Assembly (NCBI GenBank): GCA_033032175.1
Contig: CM065316.1
Span: forward strand, 4,000,115-4,064,114
Direction: 5' to 3'
Origin: Saturnia japonica
Lineage: Eukaryota; Arthropoda; Insecta; Lepidoptera; Saturniidae
Length of the DNA stretch: 64,000 nucleotides
Positions 1 to 56,375 of the stretch are shown here, one piece after another; within the stretch, counting starts at the first letter, position 1; every line of letters starts with the position of its first letter. The position numbers and the translations under genes are program-made. The notes beneath the pieces are model-generated. The model had not been told where the DNA came from. It searched no databases and saw only the letters and a program-made list of their open reading frames with translations.

Positions 1-654
1 TAAGTAGGTACACACAATATTTTTTATTCATAATAGGTTTAGCGTTTCACCTCATTCTCCACCTCCTGTTAAGCGACGGTGGTCCAAGACGGTAGCCTGC
101 TTGCTATACCTAGAGAAAGTAGCTATCGAGTGTAAGTGCCGAAAAATACCTGTAGGCGCTTGACGAATAATTTTAACAACTTCTGAATAATTCGTGATAT
201 TCAAATAAATGCTTTTACAGTAGAACTAGAAAGTAGTTAGTACAGGATAACCTATTTAAGTAATAATGTTTCCCTTTATTTCAGCTGAAACTGAAACAAC
301 AAAGTACATAAACAAGATGATATAGAGAATCCGTAATATGAATTATTATGAAGAGATACTGATCACATATTTGTGCATATAAATGTAACAAAATAGCTTT
401 TAAATAGAGTACAAGCTACACTTTTTATCAAAAATTGGTTTATAGTAAGATAATTGTTACATTTCATGGTTCTTTTCAATTTCATGCAAACGGCCAAGGA
501 ATAAAATTCACTCTCGGATTCTGTCCTTTCGCTCAACTACAACTTATGAAGTTTTCAAGCAAAAGAGTGAATGTACATCTGCTTGGTAAGCATAATCCAT
601 CGTTGTTCTCATTTTTACTTATCATTAGATAAGTTCGAAGCGAAATCTATATCA
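1..654. other. upstream non-coding sequence, no gene seen
   Basis: AT-rich sequence with no reading frame showing recognisable protein character. The 65-codon frame at 435-632 has no family resemblance and no partner exon. This stretch probably contains the distal promoter of the NACHT gene. Confidence 0.4.
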
Positions 655-662
655 TATATAAA
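655..662 (+). promoter_or_regulatory. candidate TATA box of the NACHT gene
   Basis: The sequence TATATAAA lies about 80 bases before the ATG at 741, a sensible distance for a short 5' UTR. In DNA this AT-rich such a match is weak evidence on its own. Confidence 0.25.
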
Positions 663-740
663 CATATACAATTAGATCCCAATAAAGAAAAAAATTCCAA
701 TGTTTATTGAAGTTTTTATTTAAAATATGCTGGACTAATC

Positions 741-3700
741 ATGGATATTGAATATAATATTCCTGGAATAATTACAAATAAAAGCAATGAAAATCATAAT
801 TCAGATGAAAGTAACTATGTAGATGAATGTGAACTATTGGCAGATAAATTGGAAAATGGCCATATAATTACTACAAAAACTCAATTTCTTTATCAAAAAC
901 GCACTGGCACCTCGGGCTTAAGAGGTCAGCTTTACGAAACTAAATTGTTAAGCCTCATTTTATTGAGACTTTTAAAAGATAACAATGTAAGCGAATTTCA
1001 GTTAGGTACAAATATAGATGGAATAGGGGCATTCGATGATATTGTATTCAGATACAAGATAAATGGTTCGGAAAAACCAAAAGTTGTATTTATTCAAGCT
1101 AAGCATAGAAACGATCCTGGTAAATATAAGCTAAGTATAGAAGAAATTCTTCAAGAAAAATATTTAGATAGCTATGTTAAAATTAAAAATAAGTTTGTTC
1201 CTAACTCTGAGGACGATATATTTAATAGTACGTATAAGGATGTTGAATGTAGTTTTATTTTCTACACACCAGCTGTTGAAAATATTATAAATAAAACAGT
1301 AATATTTGATGCAAATACAGAATACTTGAAAACTGGAACTACAGCAAATGTATTTCAGTTTGATTATAAGGAGGATGATATTGAGAGTTTTCTTCAAACA
1401 ATTTTATACTCTCGATGTAAATTATTGGCTAAAACTTTCATGAAGTTTATCTTAAAGGGAAATTATCATAATATAATGGCAGATGATTTAATTAAAACTT
1501 ATCATGTATTCTTAGCTAACAATGTTTTGGATATTTCAAGTGCAACAAATACAGTATTGGACGGTAAATTTTCGACTTCATTTTTAGAAAGTGATGACTA
1601 TTTATTAAAGCATATGAGAGATGTAATTTACTATGAATTGATGTCGAACACCAAGACGACTACCAACGTAGAAGATTTAGCAAAATCTTATTCTTTTAAA
1701 TTACCTTACAATTTTGGCAATCTCAATTTTAGCATAAATAGTAAAGGCGAAAAAAAGAAAAGAAGAATAAATTATTTATGTCTCAAACTAAAACAATTAC
1801 TTGACAGTAGCGACACAATGAAAATTGTAAAAATAAACGATGATATGGTAGGAACGGAAAACATTCTTCAGCATAAAGATTTAGAAATATACAGACTAGG
1901 AGGCTTAATAGGAAATATTCTTATTAAAGACAGTGAAACGGGTATGCTAAAATTTAATAATAACGATAGAGGTACGAGTGACGATGCAAAGAAAGTTTAT
2001 GAGCAGCTGAAGAGCAATTTCTTAAATATAACAGACTTATCTAACTATAGATTTGATATTGATTGTTATCGGTTCCCTAAACTTACATTACGTAACACAT
2101 TTCGTGACAAGAAACTTGTCATGGAGTTCTTGAATCAATTACAATTTTATACAAAGCAAGCTCAAGAAGATGACGTAGAACGAATTTTAAAAGATGAGAT
2201 TCATCGATATTGTAATTTTGGTGGAAAGGACAACTCTTTATATCGTATTAAAGGAGAAGCGGTATTTTTAAAAGTGCATCATGAAGTACAAAAATGGTGG
2301 AAGCAATCAGAAAAAGCGTCATATTTAACTAAAAGTACTAATTTTTATAATGATACCAAAGAAGAAATATTTAGTAGTTCACTGCTAAGTACATTTGATT
2401 ATTTCTGTATCAAAAATATTATTAATATTGAAGTGAAGTTTAAGGAAACTGTAATAGACACTATATTGCCCTATAAATCTTTAAAAAAGAAAACTATATT
2501 AAACATAGTTACCCGAGATATTATAATGACTAGTATTAAGTTAAGAGAGTGCCTACTTGAAGTAAACAAATTACCACCAGTGTTTTTGGATTTACAATTG
2601 ATTGTGTCGGAAGATTGCTTCGAAGATACTTTAACAGAAATAAAAAGCTCTAATATACAATTATTGGTAATCTTGTGCAAAAGTTGCAATCTATCAGATA
2701 AGTTAGCGAATTTATTAAAAACAACTAGAGAATTAACAATTGTTATCACTGAATGGATCTTGGATATACAAGATGCTTACAGAAATTGTTCCCAGAATAT
2801 CTTACAAATATTTGATGACAGAACTAGGTTCGTTGATCTCACAGCTGAATCACAAAATGAACTTCTTCAAAACAGCATCGTAATATACCAAGGATTTGAG
2901 ATAGTATTGTGTAAGTTATTAGGCAAAAGCCGGTATAATTTCATAAATACAGGAGTGCTCCGTAGGATTATTAATAAGGAAAAAATTATAATAGGTAAAT
3001 CTTTAAAAACTTCAAAATACAACGAGTTGAAGGATTGTTACGTCGAACGAAACATATTACGGTGCATAAAAGTAAATCTAAATGTATATCTAAAAACAGA
3101 ATTTACGGTTTTCACTCCTCAAATTGAAGATACGTTGCCAACAGAAAATCAAGACATAATTTTAATATCTGATAATAATCAAGAATTCGATAGCCTTTGT
3201 GAAAAATATAGCAATCATAATATCCATTGGTTTACCCAATTTGGAAAAGACAGTGTGTGGAGAAAAAGTTTTGGTAAAATAAATCGATTGTTGCAACACG
3301 TTGAGAGATGTACCGATAATGTGTCACATTCACGTAAACCGATGACGTTGCTAGAAACCGAAGAAAAAATAGTAATTTTGAGCGGTGAAGCTGGGATGGG
3401 TAAATCAACATTCATGACTTATTTATCAGTCCAGACGAAAGCCATGAATCCCGAATTGTGGATAATACAAATAAATTTAATTAACTATAAAACCTTGTTT
3501 AGTAACTGGCAAGAAAATAATGTTAAAATTGATTTAAAAGAGGTCTTGAAATTTCTATTTGCAGCCAGTTGTGTACAAATGGAGGAAAAAAGTAATGAAA
3601 TAATTTCTAAATTCTTTGAAAACGATGTATTTCATATAAACATAACTGAAGATGTTGCTAGAATATTAGGTGTTAAAGAAGAAAACATTCATTTAACATC

Positions 3701-5492
3701 TCATTTAGAAATTGAATTATTTTGTGATTGTTATAATAACGGCCAAATAGTTTTAATTTTTGACGGTTTCGATGAAATCAATCCAGACTATTCAAAAGAA
3801 GTGATAAGTATGTTGGAAGTACTCAAAAGTTCAAACGTTTGTCGTTTATGGATAACTAGTCGATCTTATAATATTTTAAATGAACTCCAAAACTCATTAG
3901 GTACATTTTCCTTTACACTTATGCCATTATCAATAGAAGAACAAAAGTGTTTTTTAACAAAGACATGGGCAATAAAATTAGGCGAGAGTGTCAATAATCG
4001 TTTGAACTACTATGTAAATTGGTTTTATGAAACGGTGTCTTTGGCAATTAATGATAAATATAATAAATTTACTAGTGTACCACTTCATTTATATATGATA
4101 AGTGAGATTTATCACAATTTTTTCAAAGAATTTTATGACCCATATGTTGCAAGGCTTTCTGATAAATATATGCAAGATATAAAGGATATATCTAATTTAA
4201 TATCATTCTATGAACGTTTTGTCGAAATAAAGTTTTACAAAATACGTTTTGGTGAAAAAAAACCTTTCATCTGTACTAAAGATCCTGACATGAAAAAAAT
4301 TATAGAAAAAGAACGTAAAGAGTTTACTGAAAACCATAAAATGCTAGCTGCTTATACAATATTTGATAAAAATATAGAAGGGTTATTTACTGAAAATGAA
4401 ATAGTCAAAATATTTGAAATAATGGAAAGTATAAAATTGGGAGAAGAGAAGACAGGTATAGTTGACCAAGTAGTCAATTACATACCAAAATTCGTCCATT
4501 TCACATACGCTGAATATTTTGCTACAGAATATTTATGTGACAAATTAAAATCTAAAAATTGTTCCGTTGCCATATGGATATACTTATTTCAAACCATTTT
4601 TACATCTTTTGTGAGCTTACGTAAGTTCTTTGAATGTAAATTACAAAAGGACCAACAATTATTCAATTTAAGTTTGAATAAAAAACATAAACATGAAGTG
4701 TTTAATGTGCTGTTAAAGCAATTGGATTCAGTAGATACATCTTTATGTATTACAATGAAAGAATTTTCTAAAAGCATTGCTACATTTATATTAAATAGTA
4801 TGAGAGTAGTAATCACAACGGAAAACCTGGATGGATTCATACGTTACGTTGGTAAGAGATGTAAATTAACTTGTGCTCTTTGCTTTGCCGTCGATAGTAG
4901 ATGGAAATTTATTGTTCGTCACATAATGGATATAGTAGAGTATATAGATAAAACGAAAATAATAAATCTATTTAAATGTGGAGACGTTCCAATGTTCAAT
5001 GCGTTGGGAATCGCTGTAAATTATTGCCGGTTTGATACTGATAAGCTCAATATACTTGATGCTTTACTTGAAAACATTGACAGTGATATACTTTTAGAAC
5101 TATTAATAATGCCTTGTAACATGGGTTTACTAGCTGGAAATGCCTTGCATGTATTTGTATTAAACTATGATACAATGTCAGAAACGTCTTTAAAAAAGTA
5201 TCTGTTAAAATTAAATAAAAAACAGCGAATGCGACTTTTCAGTGCGACGGATGCAGATTGTAAATTACCAGCTCATTACGCTGGACAGCATGGTGACGAA
5301 TCTTTTTTTAATTGCTTAAAGGAGTTGTTATATGATGATCACTTCAGAAAAATTTGTATGTCGCCTGATCCTACAGGAAATACACCTATAAAATACCTAA
5401 AAGCGAACGCACATCGTTGGCACAAATTGCAGGCTCTCAACAATGATACAAAAAAGAAAAGTTCTGAGTGTGTTAAAATACACCCATTGTAA
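741..5492 (+). CDS. STAND NTPase: N-terminal PD-(D/E)XK nuclease-like region + NACHT + C-terminal ankyrin-like repeats
   Basis: A single open frame of 1583 codons with no intron. Seen in the sequence: residues about 55-125 hold GQLYETK (62-68), FDD (98-100) and QAKH (119-122), the spaced E, D and Q-x-K pattern of restriction-endonuclease-like folds such as the DUF4297/Cap4 nuclease family. The Walker A loop GEAGMGKST is at 882-890. The Walker B segment VLIFDGFDE is at 1004-1012, and a sensor-1-like WITSRS follows at 1037-1042. Residues after about 1340 look helical, with ankyrin-like pieces (LPAHYAGQHGD at 1509-1519, GNTP near the end). No signal peptide or membrane segment is evident, so the protein is probably cytosolic. 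Known: NACHT proteins are switch ATPases that oligomerise when a C-terminal sensor is engaged and release an N-terminal effector. Inferred: the effector here would cut nucleic acid. The ATG at 741 opens the frame and precedes all conserved sequence. I cannot name an orthologue. Confidence 0.88.
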   Translation: MDIEYNIPGIITNKSNENHNSDESNYVDECELLADKLENGHIITTKTQFLYQKRTGTSGLRGQLYETKLLSLILLRLLKDNNVSEFQLGTNIDGIGAFDDIVFRYKINGSEKPKVVFIQAKHRNDPGKYKLSIEEILQEKYLDSYVKIKNKFVPNSEDDIFNSTYKDVECSFIFYTPAVENIINKTVIFDANTEYLKTGTTANVFQFDYKEDDIESFLQTILYSRCKLLAKTFMKFILKGNYHNIMADDLIKTYHVFLANNVLDISSATNTVLDGKFSTSFLESDDYLLKHMRDVIYYELMSNTKTTTNVEDLAKSYSFKLPYNFGNLNFSINSKGEKKKRRINYLCLKLKQLLDSSDTMKIVKINDDMVGTENILQHKDLEIYRLGGLIGNILIKDSETGMLKFNNNDRGTSDDAKKVYEQLKSNFLNITDLSNYRFDIDCYRFPKLTLRNTFRDKKLVMEFLNQLQFYTKQAQEDDVERILKDEIHRYCNFGGKDNSLYRIKGEAVFLKVHHEVQKWWKQSEKASYLTKSTNFYNDTKEEIFSSSLLSTFDYFCIKNIINIEVKFKETVIDTILPYKSLKKKTILNIVTRDIIMTSIKLRECLLEVNKLPPVFLDLQLIVSEDCFEDTLTEIKSSNIQLLVILCKSCNLSDKLANLLKTTRELTIVITEWILDIQDAYRNCSQNILQIFDDRTRFVDLTAESQNELLQNSIVIYQGFEIVLCKLLGKSRYNFINTGVLRRIINKEKIIIGKSLKTSKYNELKDCYVERNILRCIKVNLNVYLKTEFTVFTPQIEDTLPTENQDIILISDNNQEFDSLCEKYSNHNIHWFTQFGKDSVWRKSFGKINRLLQHVERCTDNVSHSRKPMTLLETEEKIVILSGEAGMGKSTFMTYLSVQTKAMNPELWIIQINLINYKTLFSNWQENNVKIDLKEVLKFLFAASCVQMEEKSNEIISKFFENDVFHINITEDVARILGVKEENIHLTSHLEIELFCDCYNNGQIVLIFDGFDEINPDYSKEVISMLEVLKSSNVCRLWITSRSYNILNELQNSLGTFSFTLMPLSIEEQKCFLTKTWAIKLGESVNNRLNYYVNWFYETVSLAINDKYNKFTSVPLHLYMISEIYHNFFKEFYDPYVARLSDKYMQDIKDISNLISFYERFVEIKFYKIRFGEKKPFICTKDPDMKKIIEKERKEFTENHKMLAAYTIFDKNIEGLFTENEIVKIFEIMESIKLGEEKTGIVDQVVNYIPKFVHFTYAEYFATEYLCDKLKSKNCSVAIWIYLFQTIFTSFVSLRKFFECKLQKDQQLFNLSLNKKHKHEVFNVLLKQLDSVDTSLCITMKEFSKSIATFILNSMRVVITTENLDGFIRYVGKRCKLTCALCFAVDSRWKFIVRHIMDIVEYIDKTKIINLFKCGDVPMFNALGIAVNYCRFDTDKLNILDALLENIDSDILLELLIMPCNMGLLAGNALHVFVLNYDTMSETSLKKYLLKLNKKQRMRLFSATDADCKLPAHYAGQHGDESFFNCLKELLYDDHFRKICMSPDPTGNTPIKYLKANAHRWHKLQALNNDTKKKSSECVKIHPL

Positions 5493-5601
5493 GATTGTTT
5501 AGTACAGCGGCTATTTTACCGGCTAATATTTGTGTTAGTTTAGCGGGCTCAAGCTACTACGTGGAAACCAATAATTAATCTATAACCTCATCTATACAAT
5601 T

Positions 5602-5607
5602 AATAAA
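5602..5607 (+). promoter_or_regulatory. polyadenylation signal AATAAA of the NACHT gene
   Basis: A canonical AATAAA lies 110 bases after the stop codon at 5492. It fits a short 3' UTR. Confidence 0.5.
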
Positions 5608-5624
5608 GTTGAAGTGTCCGTTTG

Positions 5625-5951
5625 CAATGACAAAATAACAGCTTTTTACTAAATGCATATGAAAGTATATACGGTAACTAAAACAAAACAGCATTTTTTT
5701 TATTTTTGTTTTCCTTTCTGTTTGTTAGGGGTAATCTGCGAAACGGTTGAACCCATTTTGACGGGACTTTCACTGGCAGATAGCCGATGTTATAAGGTGT
5801 AACTTAGGACAATAATTAGGGTTCCGCGAAAAAAAAAGCATATTTATATTTAAAATGACTGGCGCGTTGCACGATCTCTAAGGGACGAAGAGGGGTCACC
5901 TCAATACTTACATTCTGTAGTCCACGCGAGCGGAGCCTGGGATATAGCTAG
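5625..5951 (+). mobile_element. Helitron-like non-autonomous element, 3' end CTAG
   Basis: The end has a GC-rich potential hairpin (CCACGCGAGCGGAGCCTGGG) followed by CTAG at 5948-5951, the 3'-end layout of Helitrons. The same repeat lies in the opposite orientation at 33766-34250, beginning CTAG and sharing the words CGTGGACTACAGAATG and ATTTAGTAAAAA. It carries no coding capacity. Confidence 0.5.
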
Positions 5952-5954
5952 TTG

Positions 5955-6697
5955 CGTAATAAATGTTTAGATATATTATTTTTTTAGATATAGATCTATG
6001 TAGATTAATATATCTGTAGTTCTGTCTGTACAATTAATTTTATATCCAAATTTCCCGATAGGCGTATTATAATATGAACGATACCGATTACGAATATGCC
6101 ATTAAATAATCTTTGTCTCTCTGTCTGTTTTTTATGTCCGGATATAACTGAAAAACGGTTTGACCGATTCTTATGAATTTTGTACACGGGATACTAACAT
6201 CATTGGTCAATTGATAGGGTATAAGAAATATCAATATTAATTTTAGAAACCGTAAAAAAAATCCAGAAAATTAATTTTCGTTAATTATTGACCGATTTTA
6301 ATGAAATTTTGTACATGGGAATTTTAAGTCATTGCATGATCGATGAACATAAATTTTCAAAATCTTTAAATTTAATTATTTGTTAACCGATCGATGAAAT
6401 TTTGTACACGGGAAGTATAAGTAAGTACATGATTTATGTGCTATAACAATTGTCAATATACTTCTATCAATTATATTTTCATCAATTCTCAACCGATACT
6501 AATCAAATTTTCTAAACAAGAAACATACCTAATTCGGATATCCGAACGGAATTAGATTTTAATAGATTTAAAAAGTTAGTTAAAAATATTTTTTAGGTTT
6601 ATAATGTAAGACTTGGCATGACATATTTATTAGATACTTACGCGACTCGCCCACATTCAAACCGCTAAATCGGTTTTGTGGGAAACTAGCGTCAAGA
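5955..6697. repeat. degenerate repeated segments between Helitron-like element and tandem duplication
   Basis: A motif resembling 'accgatt..aatgaaattttgtacacggga' recurs near 6160, 6290, 6390, 6490 and again near 6800. The spacing is irregular at about 100-140 bases. It looks like a decayed internal repeat of a lepidopteran element. No gene is seen. Confidence 0.4.
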
Positions 6698-7050
6698 TTA
6701 AATGTAATACATTATTGTGCAATTTCTTAAATAAATAATAATAAATACATCATTCCATAATTTAGAGGCTATAAGAATCGTTAACAATACATTAGAAAAT
6801 TTTCAACTGATTTTGATGAAAATTGTACACGGGAAATAGATACTATTCCTTATTGATATGGTATGTGAATTGTCAACAATATGAGTAAAAATAAAATTAC
6901 GGGATGTAATTAACTAATGCGTAGTAACAATAGCGTGCGAAGCCGCGGGCACTTTATATATTTAAACTTGTAAATTACTTGTGTATAATCTGCGAATTGA
7001 CTGCAACAGTTAACATAATATAGTTTTGAATAAAAAACAATTATTAAAAT
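6698..7050. repeat. 353-bp tandem duplication, unit 1
   Basis: This unit is followed directly by a second unit (7051-7403) that is almost identical. The one difference I found is G at 6719 against A at 7072. The near identity points to a very recent duplication or an assembly artefact. Confidence 0.9.
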
Positions 7051-7403
7051 TTAAATGTAATACATTATTGTACAATTTCTTAAATAAATAATAATAAATA
7101 CATCATTCCATAATTTAGAGGCTATAAGAATCGTTAACAATACATTAGAAAATTTTCAACTGATTTTGATGAAAATTGTACACGGGAAATAGATACTATT
7201 CCTTATTGATATGGTATGTGAATTGTCAACAATATGAGTAAAAATAAAATTACGGGATGTAATTAACTAATGCGTAGTAACAATAGCGTGCGAAGCCGCG
7301 GGCACTTTATATATTTAAACTTGTAAATTACTTGTGTATAATCTGCGAATTGACTGCAACAGTTAACATAATATAGTTTTGAATAAAAAACAATTATTAA
7401 AAT
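7051..7403. repeat. 353-bp tandem duplication, unit 2
   Basis: Second copy of the unit at 6698-7050, in direct orientation and with no spacer. Both units carry 'gcgtgcgaagccgcgggc', a GC-rich word typical of lepidopteran Helitron-like termini. Confidence 0.9.
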
Positions 7404-8253
7404 ATCATCATCTGTACATAACATTAACTTAAACTATGCTATAGTAAAGTTATTATTGTTTTTTCATACTGTCTGTAATTGTTCTAATTGATCAATCTAA
7501 TATAATATTTATTATAATGTAAGCACGGTGTAGTGAAGAAAAGAGACGAAGCGAGGAATTGCGGGGAGAGGAAATGAGTACAGCCTGATTTAGTTACTGC
7601 ATGGCTGCAAAGTTGGCTTTGACTCGTGAGGAGTTATTCATTGTAACAGTTGAATTAAAAGTCGAGTGATTTATAACTTACTTTATTGTATTATTTCATT
7701 ATCTTGCTAATTATAATATCTATACGATGCATTTCTTTTACTTTTTGTTGGTAATTACAATACAAGTTTCGCAATTGTCAATCAACAGATATTCCTCCCA
7801 ATACTTTGGAGAATTTATATAACGTATTTCTTTTTCTTTGAAAAATAAATTTCACTTTTTATTTATTCTGATCAAAGGGTACTCATGAGATTAAAGGCAA
7901 GCACGATAGAGCTTCTTACGGTGAAAATCCATCGTAAGTGTTTCCTAGTAAATTTACTGAAGATAATCTCAGTATACGATTTTTTCTGTGAAAGTATTTT
8001 GCCTTATTGTGTTTCTGTATTACAAACAATAAACTATAATTTTCATGTAGTCTTGTTCAATAATAAAAATTAACTGCAAGTGACAAGTAAAAGTTCATTT
8101 TTAAAGAAAGTTCACAAGTTTGTGGTCTTCGGAAAGTAATATTTTATGGAACGAATTATTATCATAGTTATCATGGACAGCAAAGTGTGGGTAAAATAGT
8201 TGATTGAGCAATAATACGACCGTTAATTATTATATTCATCGCTATATCGTATT

Positions 8254-8257
<4 letters not shown>
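7404..8257. other. non-coding, no gene seen
   Basis: AT-rich sequence without a convincing reading frame or a recognised repeat. The 62-codon frame at 7885-8073 has no protein family character. Confidence 0.35.

Positions 8258-8299
<42 letters not shown>
8258..8299. repeat. (AT)n microsatellite
   Basis: About 21 uninterrupted AT dinucleotides. It abuts the start of a Helitron-like fragment, a common place for such tracts in Lepidoptera. Confidence 0.95.
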
Positions 8300-8303
<4 letters not shown>

Positions 8304-8480
8304 AGGCGAAAGTTTGTTGAGTGTGTTTATATGTTTGTTACTTCTTCACGTTCAAACCGGCTGGACCAAGCTTAATGAAATTTGGTATGGAGGTAGCTGA
8401 CAACCTGGGTAAACACATAAGCTACTCTTAAGGTTATTTGTGAAGGTGTCTTTTAAATTATACGCGGGTGCACAGCTAGT
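8300..8480 (+). mobile_element. Helitron-like fragment ending CTAGT
   Basis: Starts with 'ataaaggcgaaagtttgt', contains 'aaaccggctggaccaagc' and 'aatgaaatttggtatggagg', and ends 'acgcgggtgcacagctagt'. These words mark a very abundant lepidopteran repeat. The CTAG end suits Helitron-like elements, although the class is inferred. Confidence 0.5.
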
Positions 8481-9174
8481 AGTACCATAATGTAAACAAT
8501 ACAATGCTTTATAAATAATTACAGTATATTCATAATTAAATAGTTCGTTTTCATAATGCATTTAATATTAATTGGAAATGTATTTACACTATACAAAGTT
8601 ATGTTACATTATTTACACTGTTTTATTCTATTAAATTACTACAGACATATTTAACAATCGTATTTATCATAAACTATAAACACGGTTTCTGTCAATGTTA
8701 ATAATGTTAATGTTAATAATTAAATAACGAAATAAAATTATGCACATTATAACTGCGTTTCTTGATCTTACTATACAAGGATTTTCATTTGCGAAATATT
8801 TACAGAACAACCGTAATATATCTAACCGTTTTTTCCTTGTCTAATAACATTTTAACTTAAATAATTTTCATTAATACGGATTATTTATTAATTATTATTA
8901 TTCATGTTCTACGACTTCGGTGGTCCATCTAGTTTGCACCATTCAAAAGACTAATAACTCTACCGTTCGTTTTATAAGCACAGTAAGCGACATTTTTGTA
9001 GAAAAGTTAATAGAATATTTATTTATTTGAAATGAGCACATTGAGATCTATGCATTTGTATTAAATATATACATCAGTTTTTGCATTTACTAAATTTAAC
9101 AAATGGAAACCATGGTCTACGGATGGAAACTATATAATACATATTACGCATTTCCATAGCAAGGTGGAATTATA
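8481..9174. other. non-coding downstream of the GPCR stop codon
   Basis: Contains AT-rich sequence and no recognisable exon. It lies 3' of the minus-strand GPCR gene and probably includes its 3' UTR. Confidence 0.3.
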
Positions 9175-9322
9175 TTAACAGGATCGAAGATTATCAACCG
9201 GTAGGAAGAAACTCTCAGTGCTACTATCTCTGATATCTGAATTGGTCCTTTTGACTCCACTTTCAGGCTCGCAGCATTTAGGAAAAGGCGCTGTTGCATC
9301 GGCTTTGTGTGTGAAGGACTTT
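9175..9322 (-). CDS. CCHa-R: probable last GPCR exon, C-terminal tail
   Basis: This is 148 bases: one base completes an arginine codon (AG|A), then 48 codons and TAA at 9177-9175. The acceptor is AACTACAG. The tail is rich in Ser, Thr and charge (CCEPESGV, SDIRDSSTESFF), as GPCR tails are, with a Cys pair suited to palmitoylation. The assignment rests on phase agreement and composition only. Confidence 0.55.
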
Positions 9323-12300
9323 CTGTAGTTATATTTCAAACGTTCCTGGTTGTTGTTGGCCGATGAATGGCCGAACGGCCGCCCTCAGAGCTTCGATGAA
9401 CCATTGTTCATCAGCCGAATGCTGCTATCGCGTCCAACGCTGGTACTGGAAATTACGTCAATACATGCATATATCCATTTTACAGATCTTAAACTCCATC
9501 TATTGTCATTATAACTCGCTACTTCCAAATGGACTGGGTCGTGTGGTAATAGAGCGAGAGGTCGGCATTGTGTCACAAGAGCAGATGAGATAGTGGAGAC
9601 GGCAGGTCGAAGATGGCTAGGTACAACTACAGCCAGAGAAAAGTGGAAGACCTTGGAGGAGGCTTTTACCCGAAGGAGGTCACAGAAAGTAAATAATTAT
9701 ATGCCTAATATTTTAAATGTAATAATTTGCGTTAGTTCTTACTTTTATTATTATTTTGCATATATCCATAGATCCAAACAAGTTTTGCATTCATTCGACC
9801 ATCAAAACGGTGGTGCAATACAAATATTTTAAATAGTTTGCAGACTGCATCAGTGGACAGATTTAAGTTTTATTTAATGTGTTACATATTATTCCGGGTA
9901 GAGACTACAGTTGCCAACTTTAGACTCTGGAGTTACGGGACATAGTAAATTTAAATGCAGGATGAAGAATAAAAACCGGGGCGAAGCAAATATTTGCCTG
10001 AAATATAAGCAGAAATGCCTCGCAGAAGAGGTTGCTTGTAATGTTAATAAAAAAAGTATACCAATTTTCCCTTGATACTTTATATTGTTTTAAAGATGAT
10101 ATAAAATTTGGAGAGCCTATTGTCGTTCGGCATTCAGTACCGCGAATGTAAATTTGGGTTACTTTACAGGAGACACAAAAAACTGAATTTATTATATTGC
10201 ATACTTTACTATTTGCTAATTCGCGGTACCTACTGAATGCCGAACAACGCTATAATTATAAAAAACTGTATTTTTAACTAAAATCACGTTATTTCATATG
10301 GTTTGAGCAGAAAGGAGCCTTCCAGAACTCTAGAAACGGGATGGTCCAGCTCTCACAGGACTGTTGTATTTGCTACTGTAGTAGAGATGTTTTTCTTATA
10401 TGCATCTCCGAGGAAATACTTGTTAGTGAAAGATTTCTAATAAACTCCAATATACTCACGTCCTCGGGACCATACTGATGTTGGTTTTTCTGCTTGAGTG
10501 TAGTCTCCTTGAAGTAGAAAGCGACATCGAGCCCCTAGTTCCGTGTGTTGAACCTCCTCGACATAAGAGATATCTACATAATATACAAGTAAATCAGACA
10601 AGCCAGGTTTTCATACGTTTAATTTAATAGTATTTACTAGTTACCACATTTCAATTGAAATTTATAAGTATCTGAATTCTAGTGGGCGCACCTCAGAGTC
10701 AAGAAGTTTTATAATATTTAATCACATCGTTACATAAAGATAATGGAATTTCGCCTTAACAACAGTTCGGTTATGCTCGTGAAGTTCAAACTTTGATAGG
10801 TTGTTCTCCAAACAGAAGCAAGAGTAAACCAGCTCGATAGTGCAGGTGGTTTGGCTTTTGACAAATCTTTGTCACCTTTTATATCTACCGTCCAATTATG
10901 TATCTCTTTTATTAGTAAAACTTTTCAACTACCCACCAGTTGCAGAATACTTAATGGTGATTGATTAATGAGAAAAGTTTATGAAAAAACATAAAGCAGA
11001 GTTTGAACATATTATAATAATTACATAATAAGTAATTAATGTCAGACACTCGTTAACTGCGGCAGAATAAACGTGTTAAATAGTGCAGTTAAGTTTATTA
11101 TGTTATTTAAACCTTGCATACATAAAAGCATTAAGTGTGATTAGATTACATTTTAATTATATTTTTAATAAGATCCTTGAAAATAAGACAGATGTCGAGT
11201 AATAAATTTCGGTGTAGCGGCGGATGCGAATGCACGCTACCGATTTGGTGGACGTATAACTTTATTACGTAAAATATTAGAATTTTAACTTGTACAATAA
11301 TTTTGTACAAAAGCTTTCAGTTGAGAGTGAACTTTGTGCGGGAGCAACTTCACGTCATAGTCGTTACATTCCGAAACATGTCCCGGTTCATCTTGAAGTA
11401 TTAGAGGTTTGGTTCAAAATATTAGGGCTAACTTATTGTCAGGAAAAAGCGTAGGCTGATGAACTCTTTCACAAATATTAGACGGCTTCTTTGTTTGGCC
11501 ATAATTAACAGCACTAAAGCACATTTATTTAAGCTTTCTGTGAAGAAAAATGTCGTAATGAAACCATAGCATGACGGTAGAACATTTTCTAATAACCGCC
11601 TAGCTAGCAAACACCCTCTAGTTCAAAGTCTATCAATAAGCACCTACAGATGTGTACCGGCAGCTGCACTTGAGGAGCCAATCCTTGCGGATGGATATAG
11701 AAACTTGAGACACATCGCCACTTAACAAATAGTGTACTAAAACGACAACTTTGTTTTAGGCTATACTATAATATAAATTATTTTGTAACCTGTTAAAGTG
11801 TTTCCTGAAGATACCGCTGGTGCAATACAGTGCTATAGGGTTCACGCAGCTGTTAAGGAAGGAGAGGCAGAAACCAATGATACGTAGAGCGTGCCACCAG
11901 CCGTTATAATCTTCCTCTGCCGTTGGACTGTGAACAATTATTGTTCTAGTAAACATTTTTTTTGCATGCCTCATAACGCAACCGCTTCGTTGAGTCTCGA
12001 TCCGTCAAAGTCAAGTAATTTTTTGCTCTTAAACTGCCTCTACGACAACCAACTGGCACTTATACGATAATATGAGTATAAAGGCGTTTAACGCCATTAT
12101 TGTAATTGCAAAACAATTTTAAAATATATAAAGAGCCCAAATAATAAAACGTGTTGTGTTTCAATAGTTCAATTTTCTTATTCTGTCACATTTTATATTC
12201 TTCAAGGCGCTGGTATACGATGAAGGGAAAGGAAATAGGTACCTTGTCGCTCCACGTCTCTCATTTTCATAGGTCGCGAGTTCTTTTGGTTTCTATATCC

Positions 12301-15300
12301 TCACTGGCACACGAGTTCTGGTTTTTCCAATAAGCACTAATTTTATAGGTAGTTCAGCGCGGGTGCGGGTTAATTTTAAACACTTTTAGCGGAGCGTTTT
12401 TGAGAGAGTAATGCGTGCACTGTCACTTCTACTTGTTAAGAGCGAGTCTATGACGTGACCACTCGGCGATGCGTTTTGAAAGCGACTGGGGTGTGAACCA
12501 AGAAGGAAATAATGAGTGAATGAATATATGTATTAATGCGTGAATGAATAATATAAATAAATACAAATATACCGCGTATACAATTCTTCTAAATATTGAT
12601 ATCAAAACTCCTATAGATAGTTCGCATTAAAGAAGTACGAACCCACAAGTAGATATATTTCAAGAAAACAGTTTAAATAATCTATCTTATATTCGGTAAA
12701 AACAATTAAATTCAGATATTAAAAAAAAAACTGAAAAAAAAAATCACGTATACGTGCGGATTTTTTTTTACGTGTTGGTTATGATAACTCCCGAAAAAAT
12801 GAAGGTATCAAGACCGAGTTTTGTTTAAAAGCTTCAGAATAACATTAACTAGTTATATATTTAATATCTATAGCCTAGTACCCGTAGTTTATTAATAAAA
12901 TGAGGTTTTATATAAAAAAAAGTTCACTATTTACTTGGATCTAAAATTAAAGCCTATTGTGTTAAGTTGTCTAAATAAGTCAACGGTACGACTTGTTAGT
13001 CTTTATTTTCTTAAAAATCAAATGAGTAGTTTGAGGAGTGCATTTTTGGATTTTCGAAACTTTTTTTTATATTACAAAGGTAACAAACAAGCATACGGCT
13101 CTTCTGATGCTGAAGCGGCTACCAACCCTACCATAACTTACGGACGCTTGTAATGATTCCGTAATGTAATATAATAACCCCGACTAATCTCGAACCGTAA
13201 TATGGCCTACATTCTGTTTCAGCGAAAGTTACGAGATGTGTAAACAAACAAATCACGTGATCAATTCCATAGCTTTATAGTAGTGAGGGTTTATTGTTCA
13301 GGATTGCCAGCTCTTATGTCAATATATCTCTAAAAGCCAAATATGGTATCCCTAAAACTATAAACATTTAAATTTTTGGCCTAAAACGACTAATTAAACA
13401 CTACTTTAAATGTAATAATAATATCTAAAGATGTCACATTTTACACTGCACAAACACTACAATAATATAAGGTAAAGTAAGGCAAATAATACGAGTTATG
13501 GACTCGAAACTATCCTAGGTCATTCACAACTATATTTATTATTCAATCACGACAATCTATACAACTACGCTATATTAAGACTCATAGTATATGTGGTAAG
13601 TTATTACATAATACAATTAGGATCTTAATCTAAAATGTCGCGAATAACCAGCGTAAAAATACATAAAATCTGAAGAAGAAATTTATCGTATATTCTTTTA
13701 AATTGTTTTTAGAGTGTAAAAACCATCTCGTAAATTGTTTTGTCGTGTTTTTAAATATCTAACTATTATAAACATTTTTTTTTCCGGTATAATAAAAATT
13801 ATTATTCTCTGAAAATATTATAAATCGATACGAGTTACCCATATCGTTTTAAGTTGTTGTATAATATGACAACACTATTTACTCCATGGATTGGATACAA
13901 TCGCGTCGTGTGCGTTTTACAAACCTAAAATATAGAGCAATAATTTTATTTAATGAAAATAATAAGTATTTTATTGTTATTATGTGTGTGGGTGTAAAAA
14001 TAATGTTTAAAAAATACCTAATAATAGTTCTGAAATGATTTCAAATTCAATAAGTGGTAGAAGAGAAATTGCTTAATTTTGGGTTTGCTTACACTTTTCG
14101 TTCCTATAAAAGAAATGTACTTTATGTGTACCGCTATGGCGAATGTTACACTTGGTATATGGTGGTCGTGATCTAGACAGACAATTGCCCTGTCCTATCT
14201 AACTTACCAGTAATAGAACCATAACAAGAAGAAATGTGAAGGCAGGAAGCACGCAGCAAAAACTAGCACGAAAGCTAGAACTGTGACTGCAACTTTCCTC
14301 CTTGCACGCATCTGAAATAATATAAAAATCGATCAGATACATACATTAAAACTATAGTACTAGTTTTACTTTTATATCATTTTATTCTACCCTTTCTTAA
14401 ATAGAGTTTTTTGGAGACTTTCTTAGTACAGTGCCACCTATCGGATTGTAATATTTTTATGTATGTTTTAGAGCAGTGCTTTTCAATCTTTTTCAATACA
14501 CGACCCCCTTATTATGGAAAAAAACATTTATAGCGGGCGTGCGATAAGTAATCAGCACTATTGTCAGCGCTTCGTATGTATTCAATTAAATAATTATAGT
14601 CGCTAAGAAACATAGCGTAACGTTGTATCCTATTAGCAGAAACTTCCGGAATTCCACGATACGGACCAAAAATAGATAAGAGGGGCTTGTGGTCAGTACG
14701 GAGTACAAACGGGACTGCCCTTCTGTATAAATATTGGTGAAATCGTCGCACTCTGAATATAATTGCCGTAGCCTCCTTTTGTAGTTGTGAATACCGCTTC
14801 TCTTCTGTATACAGTGTACGCGAGGCAAACGACACAGGACGTTCCACTCCGTCAGTACCTACCTGCGACAGTATTGCTCCTAAACCCGTGGGTGATGCGT
14901 CTACCGTTAAAATTATTTTCCCGTTCATATCAAAATGTGCAAGAACTTGATCTGAGGCTAAACATTGCTTAATAGCATTGAATGCTTCACTATGTTTATT
15001 CTCCCATTTCCATTCATTGCCTTTTTGTAACAGGGAAAAAGTGGGCTCAATACTAAAGACGCATTAGGTACAAAGTTTCTATAATAATTGACTAATCCTA
15101 GAAATGACTGTAATTTATTTACGTTTGTATGTGTAGGTGCCACGACAATTGTCTTGACTTTTTATGGAGATTTTCTTAGGCCATTTTTATCTATAACATA
15201 TCCTAGATATTCTATTCGGTCCTCAAAAAACACATACTTATCTCTACGAAGTGTTAGTCCCGAGTCTTGCAGTCTTTGCAAGACCGCGTTCAATCTCTCT

Positions 15301-18300
15301 AAATGTTACTCTTTTGAATCTCCCGTAATACAAATATCATCAAGTATACACATAACACCGTCTAATCCCGCTAATAAACACTCCATTTCCCATTGAAAAA
15401 TAGCTGGAGTACTAGCGATACCAAAAACTAACCGCGTATATGTAAATAAACCGCGGTGGGTATTGATACAAGTTATCTTCTGGGATGCTTCGTACAATAA
15501 GAACTGTGAATACGCTTGTGTTAAATCGAATTTGGTAAACTGTTGGCCTCCGTGTAATTTTTTAAAAAGTTCTTGAGCCGTTGGTAACGGATACTGTTCA
15601 ACAACCAGTTGTTTACATTTACAGAATAGTCAACGCACAACCTGACTGAGCCATCGCACTTTAATATACATACAATGGGTGATACTTAGTAAACACACCT
15701 AACTCGACTGAGAATATAGATGGATATTGTAATTTTAACTGTTCGCAAATTGTATCAGATTGACAATAATTTATTTGCATCATTTATAAACTAAATAAAC
15801 AGATAAAATCCGGACCTAAGATTGGGGGTCCGCCAACACGCATAACTCGCACGTTAACTACTTGTGTTTTGTTTAAATATGTAAAAGGCAATTTCAATAT
15901 TCCCAAACAATGAACACGGCCCCGTATACGTAAATAGCTGATCCGTCATCAGTGTTAATGGAAATTTTTCAAAATATTTTTTATATACTTTCTCGGAAAT
16001 CGCTTTGACCGCTGATCCGGTATCGACTTCGAACTTTAGTTTAATATCCTGATATAGAAACTACTAAACATAGGTTCACCCTTATATGAACATATTTTTT
16101 TCCTTACTGTCATCGTCACTCTCGCCGGACTCACCGCCATTTCATGCGAAATTTATCTTTTTGCACATCCTTCGTAGATGGCCCTTTACATTACACTTTT
16201 TACAAGTATAGCTAGCAAACCGACACTGAGACGTTTTATGATTTTTATAACCGCACACTGAACATTTTTTTTTGTTAGCACTAGGCTCGTTTGTGGTAGT
16301 CGTGATCTTGAACAACGCCTCGCTCGACGGTGGCCCCTGTGTCGACGCCGACGATGATGCTGCTACTCCCTTGCGTGCACTTCGCACGCTTTCTGCCAAC
16401 TCCACTGCTTTCGCCAATGTTAACTCCTGAAGGTCAAGTGCGAACAGTTTGTCCTTCTCCGGGCCGAACAGTTTGTCCTTCTCCGGGCCACGCTGCATTC
16501 CCATAACAAACCGGTCACAAAGTGCCTCTTCTACTTTCAGGAAGCCGCAATGAGCCGTAAATCCACGTAGCCTCGCAGCCCACTGCGAGATTGTTTCTTC
16601 GAAACCTTGAGTTGCAGCATAGAAATTATACCGCTCACCAAATCCACATTTTTTTGGCGTAAAATGATTGTTGAGAAGCGTGAGAATGTTATCGTACGGC
16701 ACCTGTGTCAGTTCCTTCGGTAACACTAAATCGGCGGCCAGTGCATAAGTGCTGTCGGCGAGTGCGCTTAGCAATATTGCCCATCTCTTCACTCCCTGTG
16801 AGTCCTTCACTTGGTCGATGTCATTTGCAATATACCATTGTGAAATCCGTTGTTTATAGCTTTGCCATGTATGGTAAAAACTCGATAAAATTCCAAAGTG
16901 AGACATTTTTTTTTACGAGTTGTTGGTACCTACTCGTCGCCACTGATATGTATGCGAACGTAAGGATAAGTGAATCAGCCCGTACCTTGTAGCTCACTGA
17001 GTTTATTTGTCAAGCGACATTATTTATATAGGAGTGGATGCAACCACCTTCATATTATCAAGATAATATACAAAAACACAATTTTTGCCGTCGCTATAAA
17101 AAATAAATATTAACAAGAAAGTTGAAAAATCGTATAAATCGCTTCGAATTATAAGTTGCATCAAGATCTTGGACATCATATTAAACCGCAGCGCATCATG
17201 GTTTCAATCAATAAATTCAAGACCTGCCATTCAGGAGTTTGATTTGGCCGAATTGGTGAGTACGTATTTATTTATTTGGTACCTAAGATTTGCTGTGAAC
17301 GTATCTTCAGGGCAGGCGACCTACGCTCTTTTTTTTGTCATTTTCGTTTTCGCATCCACACAACCGCAGTTCCTGGTTCATAGTTTTGTTTTTGATATAA
17401 TTAGTGCCTTTTCATGGTTGCTGCAGCTTATTCAAAATACAAATAATTATCTTTGAATTCACCAGACTGCGAATTCTTTTGAAATTGAATTAACTTGTTA
17501 TCAGTGATAAATGAGTACAATTTGCTGCCGATGACAGTTTGAAGTTATATTTATGTGGATTCTATTTAATAATTTTTAATTTTCGCCGGCAAAGTTCAGG
17601 GCGATCGCCTATAAATTCGCTTTCTTTGTACCGGTGTGAATTGTCGCTTGCAAAACTTTTTATTTAGATTTTACTGTTTTTACTATTAGGTACAGTACCA
17701 TCAATGTGCCGAGCTATTAAAAAAAAAAAAAAATTTGCACGAACCTTCCACTTTGCGCCCAACGTCTGTCTAATTATGTTAGTGTGACAAAGGACAGCGT
17801 AGGCTAGTACGTCAGTTTTTTCGGTGGTTTTCATTTGTATACAAGTGTATGGTACTTGTAGCAACATCTCTCGCCATAACTGACGCATCCTACACATAGC
17901 AACATCTCCGCCATAACTGACATCCTACATCGCGATATAGAAATTATCCGAACAATTGCGTATATATACAAGAACCCGACAAGAACCGTTGATGTCATAG
18001 GTATTCACAAGCCCGGCAAGAGCACGTCGCTTCCCGACAGCTACCGCCCTATCAGTCTTCTAAATACCCTAGGTAAAATCTATGCGCGGATCCTTCTGAA
18101 CCTTCTTAAATCCGTAATAGAGGAGAAAACCCTCTATCCGCCTGAGCAATTCGGCTTTCGTGCTAGACATTCTTGCACTCATCAAGTGCACCGCCTCACG
18201 GAGCACATTTTGTTTAACTTTTCCGAGTTATATAAACCCCGTCGTACACTGGCAGTCTTTTTCGACGTAGCCAAGGCCTTTGATAAGGTCTGGCATGAAG

Positions 18301-21300
18301 GATTAGTCTATAAGCTGTACTCCCGCGAAGTCCCCGATAGATTAGTTAAAATCATCCGCGATTACCTCAAAGACCGCACCTTTCGCTACAGAGTGGAAGG
18401 TGAACTATCCATACCCCATCCCATACGCTCAGGCGTCCCACAAGGTTCCATCCTGGCTCCTAGCCTCTTCAATCTGTACGTCAGTGACCTACCAAAACTT
18501 CCCGCGAAAGTTGAGGTAGGCTTATACGCTGACGATACAGTCATATACTACTCTCAAAGGCAAAAGAGCAACCTCAAATGTAGAATTCAAAGAGCCGTGA
18601 CCACTCTCGGGGGGTGGTTTAACGACTGGCGAATAGCCATCAACTCCACGAAGAGCGCAGCGGTGCTCTTCGACTAAACCGCCTCACAGATACCGAAAAA
18701 ACTCAAGGATCATCCCCTTGAACTCTTCGGTAATCCGATCCATACGCCATATCACTCTGGTTAGGAAAAGGGCCGCCTGGACCCTCGCCCGATTGCATCC
18801 TCTATTATGTGCTGCAAGTAAAATGTCCACGAGACACAAGCTTACGCTCTACAAGATGTGTATCCGACCGATTATGACATATAGCTGCGTTGTGTTCGCA
18901 CATATGTCAAGATATAATTGGAAACGCTTACAAGTCATCCAGAATAGGTTTCTTCACCGCCTTACCAGCGCCCCTTGGTATGTTCGTATGGAGGATCTCC
19001 ATAGAGATATGGACTTTCCTTCGATACATGCCTATGCCAAACACCTTTCTCGCTCTTATTTCACCTCCACATCGAACCACGCGAATCCCTTAATAAAAGC
19101 GGCAGCTTCGTATGTTCCCGACCCCAATGCCTGCCGGAGTAAACGCCGGCCGCGTAATATATTCACTGACCCGCTCGACCAAATCGAAACAGCTAACGCG
19201 TTCTACGCAACCGTCTCTCCAAACAGAGCGTGTCACCGTTCACGCCTGCGTAACCACCGTTCTCTCCGCAGAGGACGGGCGGTTAACTTCGCTCCCGCAC
19301 ACCCGTCACGTCCACCCTCTCTAGCGGTAACCCAAGCCTAGGTCCGTTCCTCGGTGTGAAGCCCTTGGGTCAGCCAGCCGCCCGCGCGATACAAAGTGAC
19401 ACTATACGTGCAACACTTAGCTACCCACACACAACATTACACACGTATGAACAACACACACGTGCACACCACACAGGTACATAGGTTCTGTAAGGGACCT
19501 TTTTTTTTTCTTTTTATGCGCTAGTTAGACTAATGCGCTAGTTAGTGTAGAAAAACCATTCCGATCACTAAATACACATACGCATGGTTCCCTCCTTCCT
19601 CCCAGGAGGAAGGGAACGTGCATATGAGTATATGTTAGTTAGTTCGAATTCTCTTAGGATCAGGGAATTAGATAGATCGCGAACTTTTCGCATTCGCGAC
19701 GACCGCCCGAGCCGAGGTTCGGCCACTCTGGCACCCTCGTGCGGGTCGACACAAACTTTCGCGGCTGAGTGCCCTAAGCGCTCGCCCCCAAGTCCGGTGA
19801 AGCTGTAAAAGCCGCAGCGGCTCTGGTTTTGGATAGGGCCCCTAAGGCTAACAGTGTAGTAGGTTCAAAAAAAAAAAAAAAAAAAAAAGAACCATTGGGC
19901 AGCTGCCCGCCAGACATAACACCCGTCTGGTCGGAGGATCCTCCATTTTCTATGGCGGATGAGGAACTTTATGTTCCTCACCTTCGCTAAATACTTATTT
20001 TAATATTTTGCGCGTACTAAGTGTGATTTGGCATAGTTTTGTTATCCAAGCACATAGTTATAGTGACACTAATAAATAAAATAGGTAAGTTTTACATTGT
20101 TACCTTTCAAATTTAAAAAATGGAATAAGTATAAAAAAAATCCGTTTAAGATGCGTAAAAAAATTACGAATACAAAACTCTTTTCCCCCTCGGATATCCG
20201 GCACATGTCTAATGTATAGATATTCCAATCTATTTTTAACTTTGAACATCTGATGAATGTCTTTTCATTTCATTCTTTCACATCATAGTTGAGAGCAGAT
20301 CAGGCGGACTGTAGTCAAATGCCAATCTATTAAAAAAATTCCTTACCTGTCTTTGAGTGCCTTGCATCTCACCAGGCATATTCTGGGTGCTCAGAACAAG
20401 GTGCCTCGCCATCAGAATATAGAAGAGTGCGATAATAGCCAACGGTAGGGAGTAGTACACGAGGAATCTCATTAGTACCATTATTTTCGGGTAATCCTTA
20501 CCCCATTCCATAGGGTAAGGATAGCATACTAAGAACTGGAAAGTATAAAAAATAAACTAATGAATATAAGATTAAAATGGTGAGTTGTGTGGCGGGGTAT
20601 ATGTATTCGACTGGGTCGTGACAAGCTTTCATGTGATAAACGTTCCTTCGCATTTACTCTCTTTTGGTTTGTCGCGTTTTGGAATCAGCCGTTCCTTATC
20701 TAACTGCCGAAACGCTTGAAGGCTGGCATGGCAGCGACAACCATGATCAGGCACAGTGCCTTACGTCACTTTGTTATGCTATTTAAAAAAGATTTGTATG
20801 TACGCACGTAAGAAGTTATACCTACGTCTATGGTGTAATGTAAAAATGTATTCACGTGACAACAACATGATGAAGTTAGCCATCAGTCTATTTAAATAAA
20901 ATTATCCAGTTTTGGCGTTGTGCATGCATTACGCAAAAACTACGGGATATATTTTAATCATTGTTTCGTTTTAATCCTTAGATATCACGATATGATAATT
21001 CAATAAAAAGTTAGACAGCTAGTGATAATCTGTACACAAAATTCATTTTACTGACCTTTAACGGTGTATATATAAACGCTAATTTAATTTAATTAAAATA
21101 CAACGTTAAATTACTTTTTACATTACAAAAATACTCAGTGAAATGAATTTGAATTATTATCATTCATGGCTATCTCCATCATGTCGCACTTCCGTCGTAA
21201 TCTATATATTAATACGTGAAGCAACAGCTTTCGGTACCTTTTTAAGCGTATTGCGTGCACGGAAGAATGTGAGATTTGGCATGTTTAAAGTTTATAGGGA

Positions 21301-41319: not shown

Positions 41320-41934
41320 TCAATGCAGTACAACAGAATAGCTCAGTATAATATGCATAAAGTTTGCTCTTCAGATATTAATATGAAGATAGTTATAATA
41401 ATACTATAGATTAACTAATATTTACAATTAAATAATTTTCTTTTACTTTTGGTGTATATTTTAAAGTAAGACAAAGTAAGACAATGTAAGACACTTACTT
41501 TTTTTACCAGTAATATTTATTGAACTATATTTGAATGTAAAGGTCGATTGCGATGCATTTTTATTATTGGATATGTGATCATATCTCATACTGCTACAAT
41601 GACGTTTGTTATGTTTTAATACAATATATTTATTCAAATAGAAATTTTGGGCTTCTCAACCTCCACAGACAGGATGAGACCTTCCTCTCATATTAAGAAT
41701 TGAGCAAATTCTATTAAAAGCTAGATTATATTTAGTAATTAGGCACAGTAAAGAAGAAATAAGTTGAACTTAATACTTTGATACAAGCGTACATTGTACA
41801 TATTTTTATTTAAAAAAAAACGTTACCAAGGGCTTCTATTCTATATTCGTATTCTGATGAAAGTTTAGTACGTGTGTGCCCAGTCGTCGTCAACTGGTGT
41901 TCGAGTGAAGTCTTCAGTTTCTCTGACCACGAAA

Positions 41935-42618
41935 ATGGGTTTAAATATTTCAAAACTAAAAGAACGTGTAAAGTCATCATCTGAAAAGTCAATATTATAC
42001 GTTCGTTTTGTATTCGGATGTTATTCTAAAATTAGCAAATCTAAACTAAAATGTTTGCTATTCAAATTGTATTGTGTGTGTGTTACTATTGCCCCTACAA
42101 TGATATATTTATTACAAAATAAATTTCTTAACCCTTATATGATTTTAGCGTTATTCGAATACATTTCATTGATGTCTTTAAGTTTAATTACAGCAGAAAA
42201 ATTCCTAATTAATTATTGTAACAACATTAAAACTTTTACTGCTATTATGGGTGTTGAGCGTGCTGCAATAATTCCTCTTAATGTGATGATAATTATGATG
42301 ACTTTTATAATATCTAGAGCCGTTGTGTTTATTACGAAAGCTTTGCAATTATCCATTACGTTTAAGCCAGTCCATATCACAATTTCCTACATTTTAATAG
42401 CTAAAGATATTAACTACTTATCGGTCATTATTGTTTTTGCGATTTTACATAACCGAATGAAGATCATAAGAAAATCAATGGAGAGGAATACGATTCCGGT
42501 GAATATTATTGGGCGGAATGAGATAAAAACGAAGACAAAGTTAATCAGAAAGTCAATGTTAATGTACAAACATTTATTGGACAACATATTCGGAATTGAT
42601 CGTAATCTACAATGTTTG
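41935..42618 (+). CDS. gustatory receptor 1 exon 1
   Basis: 228 codons from MGLNISKLKERV to LQCL, ending at donor TTG|GTAATT. It encodes the cytoplasmic N-terminus, about four membrane segments and the long intracellular loop. The frame runs on to 42657 but the donor and phase agree with copy 2. Confidence 0.88.
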
Positions 42619-56056: not shown

Positions 56057-56375
56057 TATATATGTTTTGATACAATATATTCATACAAATTAAAATATTG
56101 AGCATCTAAAGTCGCACAGGCAGAATCAGACCTTCTCATAATAAACATTGAGAAAATTCTGTTAAAAGCTAGATTATTATAATAATAAGACACAGTAAAG
56201 AAGAAATATGTTAAACTTAATACTTTGATACAAGTGTACATTGTACTTATTTGTAATTCTAAAGAATGGTACCAAGGGCTTCTATTCCTGTATTCTGATG
56301 AAAGTTTAGTACTTTTTTGCCCAGTAGTCGTCAACTGCTGTTCGAGTGAAGTCTTCAGTTTCTCTGACCACGAAA

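What the first reader, a model, noticed from the sequence alone, without database searches (positions are those of the whole stretch)
741..5492. Insect NACHT protein with an N-terminal nuclease-like effector, laid out like bacterial Avs/Cap4 defence proteins
Directly seen: E66, D99/D100 and Q119-x-K121 in a short N-terminal region, then Walker A at 882-890 and Walker B at 1004-1012, then a helical/ankyrin-like C-terminus. Known: bacterial Avs STAND proteins pair a PD-(D/E)XK nuclease with a STAND ATPase and a repeat sensor, and Cap4-type DUF4297 nucleases use the same Q-x-K pattern. Animal NACHT proteins usually carry death-fold effectors. Inference: this gene is a metazoan nucleic-acid-cutting immune switch, by ancient descent or transfer. 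Whether it is already described could not be checked here.
Basis: partly seen in the sequence, partly recalled or inferred. Interest (0 to 1): 0.88.

Follow-up and report, generated by a model that had tools for sequence, protein, structure and literature searches.

The report
Insect NACHT proteins with Cap4-like nucleases
A moth-like insect genome carries a large family of immune-receptor-like proteins whose front end looks like the DNA-cutting domain of bacterial anti-virus proteins, and a bacterial symbiont of insects carries the same domain inside its own giant proteins.

The parts
741..5492 (+). whole gene in one frame, 1,583 aa nuclease-NACHT protein
882..1385 (+). Cap4-like nuclease core, residues 48-215 (alpha-beta-beta-beta-alpha-beta)
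936..938 (+). E66, conserved acidic residue of the first helix
1035..1040 (+). D99-D100, just before the second core strand
1095..1103 (+). Q119-A120-K121, end of the third core strand
1386..2045 (+). insert in the nuclease domain (residues about 216-435); its profile is not found in relatives P0040 and P0041 and is weak in Daphnia P0042, present in the Wolbachia proteins
2046..2408 (+). second, helical part of the Cap4-like domain, residues 436-556
2409..3320 (+). conserved alpha/beta middle region, residues 557-860, fold not identified
3342..4070 (+). NACHT ATPase, residues 868-1110
3384..3407 (+). Walker A GEAGMGKS
3750..3776 (+). Walker B VLIFDGFDE
4071..4565 (+). helical region after NACHT (winged-helix region of NLRs by position), residues 1111-1275
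4566..5423 (+). ankyrin-like helical repeats, residues 1276-1561, candidate sensor
294..5439 (+). segment duplicated in inverted orientation upstream of the window (about C13:3981802-3986879), 94.1% identical, copy interrupted by stops

Best explanation
The gene encodes a STAND/NLR-type receptor with a built-in nuclease. In the resting state the NACHT domain holds the chain closed. Binding of a pathogen or damage signal, probably by the C-terminal ankyrin-like repeats, would exchange nucleotide and trigger oligomerisation, bringing several Cap4-like domains together into an active DNA-cutting assembly, so that an infected cell degrades DNA (its own, the invader's, or both). Shown here: the frame, the conserved residues, the predicted fold, the NACHT, the gene family. 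Inferred from bacterial Avs3 and HerA-DUF4297: oligomerisation-driven cutting. Not shown: ligand, activity, immune role. The family occurs across Pancrustacea (moths, mosquito, Daphnia) and is expanded in arrays; some paralogues have changed catalytic residues and may act as decoys, regulators or sensors without a blade. Wolbachia carries the nuclease+insert module in giant proteins with other domains, most likely captured from an arthropod.
Against: No sequence-profile hit to PF14130 (Cap4_nuclease) in the window protein at E<=1 or in five relatives at E<=10, nor to PADLOC Avs models; plain Foldseek against PDB gave no hit below E=0.001 for the N-terminal model (best MspJI 8e-3, Cap4 1.7e-2). 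No expression, ligand or activity data. In 6 of 16 intact paralogues in this genome catalytic residues are changed, and K121 is also changed in P0014 and P0016 of other moths, so cutting is not needed in every member. Walker B is altered in 5 of 20 own genes aligned (L010, L011, L021, L022, L023), two of which (L010, L022) keep the nuclease residues and a full frame. dN/dS values are pairwise NG86 without significance tests, pairs share branches, and the pattern is not general: L013-L014, which keep the residues, have 0.42 in the nuclease core against 0.49 in the ankyrin-like end, L010-L011 have 0.43 in the core, and L026-L028 have a faster core (0.43) than end (0.22).
Confidence: 0.66

Rival explanations
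1. A genome-defence or selfish-element factor: the protein recognises and cuts transposon or foreign DNA or RNA inside the germline, or spreads itself in arrays, and is not an infection sensor.
For: Single-frame copies in arrays on three further contigs (C20, C23, C26); transposable-element ORFs in the same window; a short repeat at about 5595-5813, just downstream of the gene, recurs near L015, L026 and L033.
Against: NLR-like NACHT and a long helical C-terminus point to ligand sensing; in a blastn of window 1-14000 against seven loci only short pieces match outside the gene, apart from the inverted copy, so no shared element ends were seen, though this was not searched systematically; the coding frames look constrained over divergent duplicates.
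Confidence: 0.12
2. A dead-nuclease scaffold: the fold is kept for protein or nucleic-acid binding and oligomerisation, not for cutting.
For: 6 of 16 intact own paralogues have changed residues (L021, L023, L025, L026, L028, L029); many nuclease-fold domains in other systems are inactive (recalled).
Against: The window protein and 55 other rows keep all five residues, which are among the eight invariant of 178 columns; pure scaffolds would not be expected to keep exactly the catalytic set.
Confidence: 0.14
3. The arthropod family descends from a symbiont gene: Wolbachia or a relative gave the nuclease module to insects.
For: The module is shared with Wolbachia giant proteins P0045 and P0044; AU tests do not exclude a Wolbachia branch outside the insects (p 0.277 and 0.274, 0.444).
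Against: Far more breadth in arthropods, including many Daphnia proteins. Wolbachia rows fall inside a 17-row set with Culex and the window orthologues (98/96) and, with Daphnia as outgroup, inside a 47-row set (100/99). They share the insert whose profile is missing in P0040 and P0041. Two scans of GTDB genomes confirmed no bacterial relative, weak evidence because they did not find the Wolbachia proteins either.
Confidence: 0.12

Closest known systems
Avs3 (bacterial STAND antiviral protein; PDB 8dgc)
   Different: No PADLOC hit; nuclease domain split by an insert; NACHT closest by Foldseek to animal NLRs; ankyrin-like and not TPR-like sensor (the latter recalled)
Cap4 and HerA-associated DUF4297 nucleases (PF14130)
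   Same: Predicted fold including the helical second part, and E...DD...QxK residues
   Different: No PF14130 profile match; the effector shares a chain with NACHT, not with SAVED or a HerA partner
Animal NLRs (NOD2, NLRP3, NLRC4)
   Same: NACHT plus following helical region, Foldseek E about 1e-7, probability 1.00
   Different: Nuclease-like effector where these carry CARD or PYD; ankyrin-like in place of LRR (NLR features recalled)
Wolbachia giant modular proteins (P0045, named Wolbachia of Endotricha flammealis; P0044, unnamed but near-identical in this part)
   Same: Same nuclease core + insert + second part (profile positions 5-547)
   Different: NB-ARC in place of NACHT; ankyrin repeats in both, TPR in P0045, Latrotoxin_C in P0044; middle region and NACHT profiles not found
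Arthropod NACHT proteins noted beside prophage WO NACHT (Bordenstein and Bordenstein 2016, PMC5062602)
   Same: NACHT homologues in arthropods incl. Culex, Bombyx, Daphnia (passages), probably this family (inference)
   Different: The term nuclease was found 0 times in that paper's main text; the effector was not described in the passages seen

Membership tests
Cap4/DUF4297 nuclease | restriction-endonuclease-like core with E, D and Q-x-K in order | tested here: met
   predicted model only
Cap4/DUF4297 nuclease | fold match over core and helical second part | tested here: met
Cap4/DUF4297 nuclease | match to Pfam PF14130 above its cut-off | tested here: not met
   no PF14130 row at E<=1 for the window or E<=10 for 5 relatives; the six-frame search found none, but nothing rang in its 14 controls either
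Cap4/DUF4297 nuclease | metal-dependent DNA cutting | not testable with these tools
   needs protein
Avs (bacterial antiviral STAND) | nuclease + STAND + sensor in one chain | tested here: met
   sensor role inferred
Avs (bacterial antiviral STAND) | match to PADLOC Avs models | tested here: not met
   no hit at E<=1 for the window; of 4 relatives scanned, all match mad8 weakly and P0041 also PDC-M72A, Ankyrin and MzaA in its ankyrin region
Avs (bacterial antiviral STAND) | senses viral terminase or portal | not testable with these tools
   needs experiment
Animal NLR / NACHT family | NACHT with Walker A and B | tested here: met
   PF05729 E=9e-8, above cut-off; motifs
Animal NLR / NACHT family | C-terminal leucine-rich repeats | tested here: not met
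   no LRR family; ankyrin-like
Ankyrin-repeat C-terminus | Pfam ankyrin match or clear fold | tested here: inconclusive
Wolbachia cifB-type nuclease toxins | sequence or strong fold relation to CidB/CinB | tested here: inconclusive
   weak Foldseek rows 7fiv_B E 0.078, 7esz_C 0.13, not among the VIA rows shown

The most novel reading that the evidence does not exclude
Arthropods hold an expanded family of NLR-like receptors that kill or sterilise infected cells by cutting DNA with a Cap4-type blade, an animal counterpart of bacterial Avs abortive infection; some paralogues have become bladeless partners; and Wolbachia has stolen the blade and put it into its own giant, probably host-directed proteins.
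Probability: 0.4. Interest if true: 0.93.

Novelty: new variant of a known kind. Interest (0 to 1): 0.8.

Why it matters
Animal NLRs are thought to act through adaptor domains, while bacterial Avs act through their own enzyme (recalled). An animal family with the Avs3 layout would make the proposed Avs-to-NLR link (stated in PMC11249213, passages) testable in insects, would give insects a class of presumably cytosolic receptor not described in the papers that the searches listed, and offers a concrete gene exchange between host proteins and a symbiont. The paralogues with and without catalytic residues are a natural comparison set.

Tried and rejected
Sequence-level bacterial origin: tblastn of residues 1-560 against 50,697 phage records, no match; tblastn of the insert-free nuclease of P0041 against 72,556 plasmid records, one chance-level row at E=6; GTDB scans with A5 and with the Wolbachia module, 0 confirmed of 210 and of 47 pattern matches, which also means the Wolbachia proteins themselves were not found there, so these scans are weak evidence of absence; one IMG/VR scan, 0 of 11. 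PDB sequence search: only chance-level hits for the window and for A5; of 546 matches to A2 the 60 shown are ankyrin-type or ankyrin-containing chains, because rows with ankyrins dominate that profile. A profile-profile comparison with bacterial DUF4297 proteins was wanted, but no bacterial genome handle could be obtained. Viral structure library: no match below E=0.001; herpesvirus UL24-type and Mrr-like proteins appear weakly. The third protein search also listed vertebrate ankyrins and other repeat proteins: 27 of 64 new rows match neither the nuclease nor the NACHT profile and were set aside as ankyrin matches. A first module alignment misplaced P0041 and P0042, which lack all or most of the insert; it was replaced by domain-wise alignment. 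The claim that the tree proves transfer into Wolbachia was dropped after three AU tests. Rows left out of trees: one search used 56 of 67 sequences, 8 left out by name (partial or near-duplicate) and 3 by threshold (L027, P0046, P0047); one search used 62, after thinning 8 of those 56 and adding 14 of the 64 new rows. The 8 own paralogues called changed were set by hand. The OTU-like start of P0044 and P0045 is my reading of the sequence; one search does not list OTU. PMC5606592 and PMC7917218 were opened for a statement on NLRs in arthropods; the passages seen gave none.

Full report
WHAT IS THERE. ORF 741-5492 (+) is one uninterrupted frame of 1,583 aa. Pfam finds NACHT (877-1074, E=9e-8) and NPHP3_N above their cut-offs; PADLOC finds nothing at E<=1 and NCBIfam only short matches far under their cut-offs.

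RELATIVES. phmmer lists 42 proteins among 7,989 scored candidates: 13 rows named Mythimna separata, 5 Mythimna loreyi, others Spodoptera, Helicoverpa, Heliothis, Arctia and Chrysodeixis, plus Culex quinquefasciatus (P0018), Daphnia magna (P0042) and unnamed rows. The closest is an unnamed 1,583-aa protein at 73% (P0001). A profile search (36 rows, 5 of them new) added P0045, named Wolbachia endosymbiont (group B) of Endotricha flammealis, on a 1.75-Mb contig, and P0044, unnamed and near-identical to it in this part. A third search added many Daphnia proteins: of 64 new rows, 33 match the nuclease profile, all 33 also NACHT, 37 match NACHT in all, and 27 match neither.

GENE FAMILY IN THIS GENOME. 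Two searches with different queries agree on 25 loci, a lower bound by the tool's own note: 2 on C13, 3 on C20, 3 on C23, 17 on C26. Sixteen have one open frame of at least 1,518 aa from ATG. In 14 of these 16 the nuclease starts at residue 121 or later, after a stretch that reads by eye like ankyrin repeats; in the window gene and L019 it starts near residue 50. The nearest locus is an inverted copy on C13, 94.1% identical over window 294-5439 and broken by stops. All five residues are kept in 10 of the 16 (window, L010, L013-L019, L022). They are changed in 6: L021, L023, L025, L026, L028 (Q119R only), L029. Among shorter copies L024 and L027 are changed. GKS of Walker A is kept in all 20 genes aligned, but Walker B is altered in 5 (L010, L011, L021, L022, L023), so both halves are being lost in places. 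Pairwise dN/dS over the 26 closest pairs is 0.24-0.54 for whole genes; in L015-L018 against L019 the nuclease core is slowest (0.22-0.25) and the ankyrin-like end fastest (0.59-0.65). Other pairs do not show this: L013-L014 0.42 against 0.49, L010-L011 core 0.43, L026-L028 core 0.43 against 0.22. No significance test was made.

WOLBACHIA. P0044 and P0045 align to profile positions 5-547, that is nuclease, insert and second part, then continue with NB-ARC and ankyrin repeats, with TPR in P0045 and Latrotoxin_C in P0044. In the first tree they fall in a 17-row set with Culex and the window orthologues (98/96); with 12 Daphnia rows as outgroup they fall in a 47-row set (100/99), exact place unresolved. 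Three AU tests do not reject trees that put Wolbachia outside the tested insect sets (p 0.277 and 0.274; 0.444). Breadth in arthropods and the shared insert favour arthropod to Wolbachia; this is a preference, not a proof, and the root is assumed. Bordenstein and Bordenstein 2016 gave the same direction as more parsimonious for another WO gene, with the reverse plausible, and found NACHT homologues across arthropods (PMC5062602, passages); the term nuclease was not found in that text.

HOW IT LIKELY WORKS. By analogy with Avs3 (recalled) and HerA-DUF4297 (an Mg-dependent dsDNA nuclease dependent on DUF4297 dimerisation, acting by abortive infection; PMC11291478, passages), ligand-driven oligomerisation of NACHT would pair the nuclease domains and start DNA cutting. 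Each step after the anatomy is inference.

LITERATURE. Ten full-text searches of the held library listed no paper that I recognised as describing a nuclease-NACHT protein in arthropods; I judged by titles and abstract starts, of capped lists in some searches, and saw passages of PMC8195603, PMC5062602, PMC12445526, PMC11249213, PMC11291478, PMC5606592 and PMC7917218. Most subscription papers and bioRxiv are not held, so it may be described elsewhere. Statements on death-fold effectors of animal NLRs and on the Avs3 sensor are recalled.

VERDICT. A real, conserved and probably functional family: a new variant of the nuclease-STAND kind, in animals.

Noticed in passing
G000 C13:3981791-3986482 (L009), outside the window: Inverted copy of the gene, 94.1% identical over window 294-5439, interrupted by stop codons, about 14 kb upstream of the gene.
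   Followed up: partly
L021, L023, L025, L026, L028, L029: Intact long frames with changed nuclease residues; L021 and L023 also have an altered Walker B, as do L010, L011 and L022.
   Followed up: partly
P0046 (2,093 aa, unnamed source): Shares the middle region and NACHT but has another N-terminus with a HExxH-like stretch (seen by eye), suggesting an exchanged effector.
   Followed up: no
window 5595-5813: Short repeat just downstream of the gene that recurs, at 75-94% identity, near family loci L015 and L026 and in L033; nature unknown.
   Followed up: no
window 41872-42657 and 56346-57098 (+): Two closely similar ORFs that look by eye like insect chemoreceptors; no Pfam match.
   Followed up: partly
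window 18186-18677, 52803-53261, 62822-63637 and 16142-16906: ORFs of mobile-element type: reverse transcriptase, integrase core (under its cut-off), Baculo_FP domain, zinc-knuckle gag-like protein (weak).
   Followed up: partly
window 6698-7403 and 24719-24927: Two near-perfect tandem duplications, 353 bp x2 (99%) and 104 bp x2 (100%); the first lies just downstream of the gene.
   Followed up: no
Daphnia proteins among P0048-P0100: Large Daphnia expansion of the same architecture; several members share the longest-contig length and so probably one contig.
   Followed up: partly
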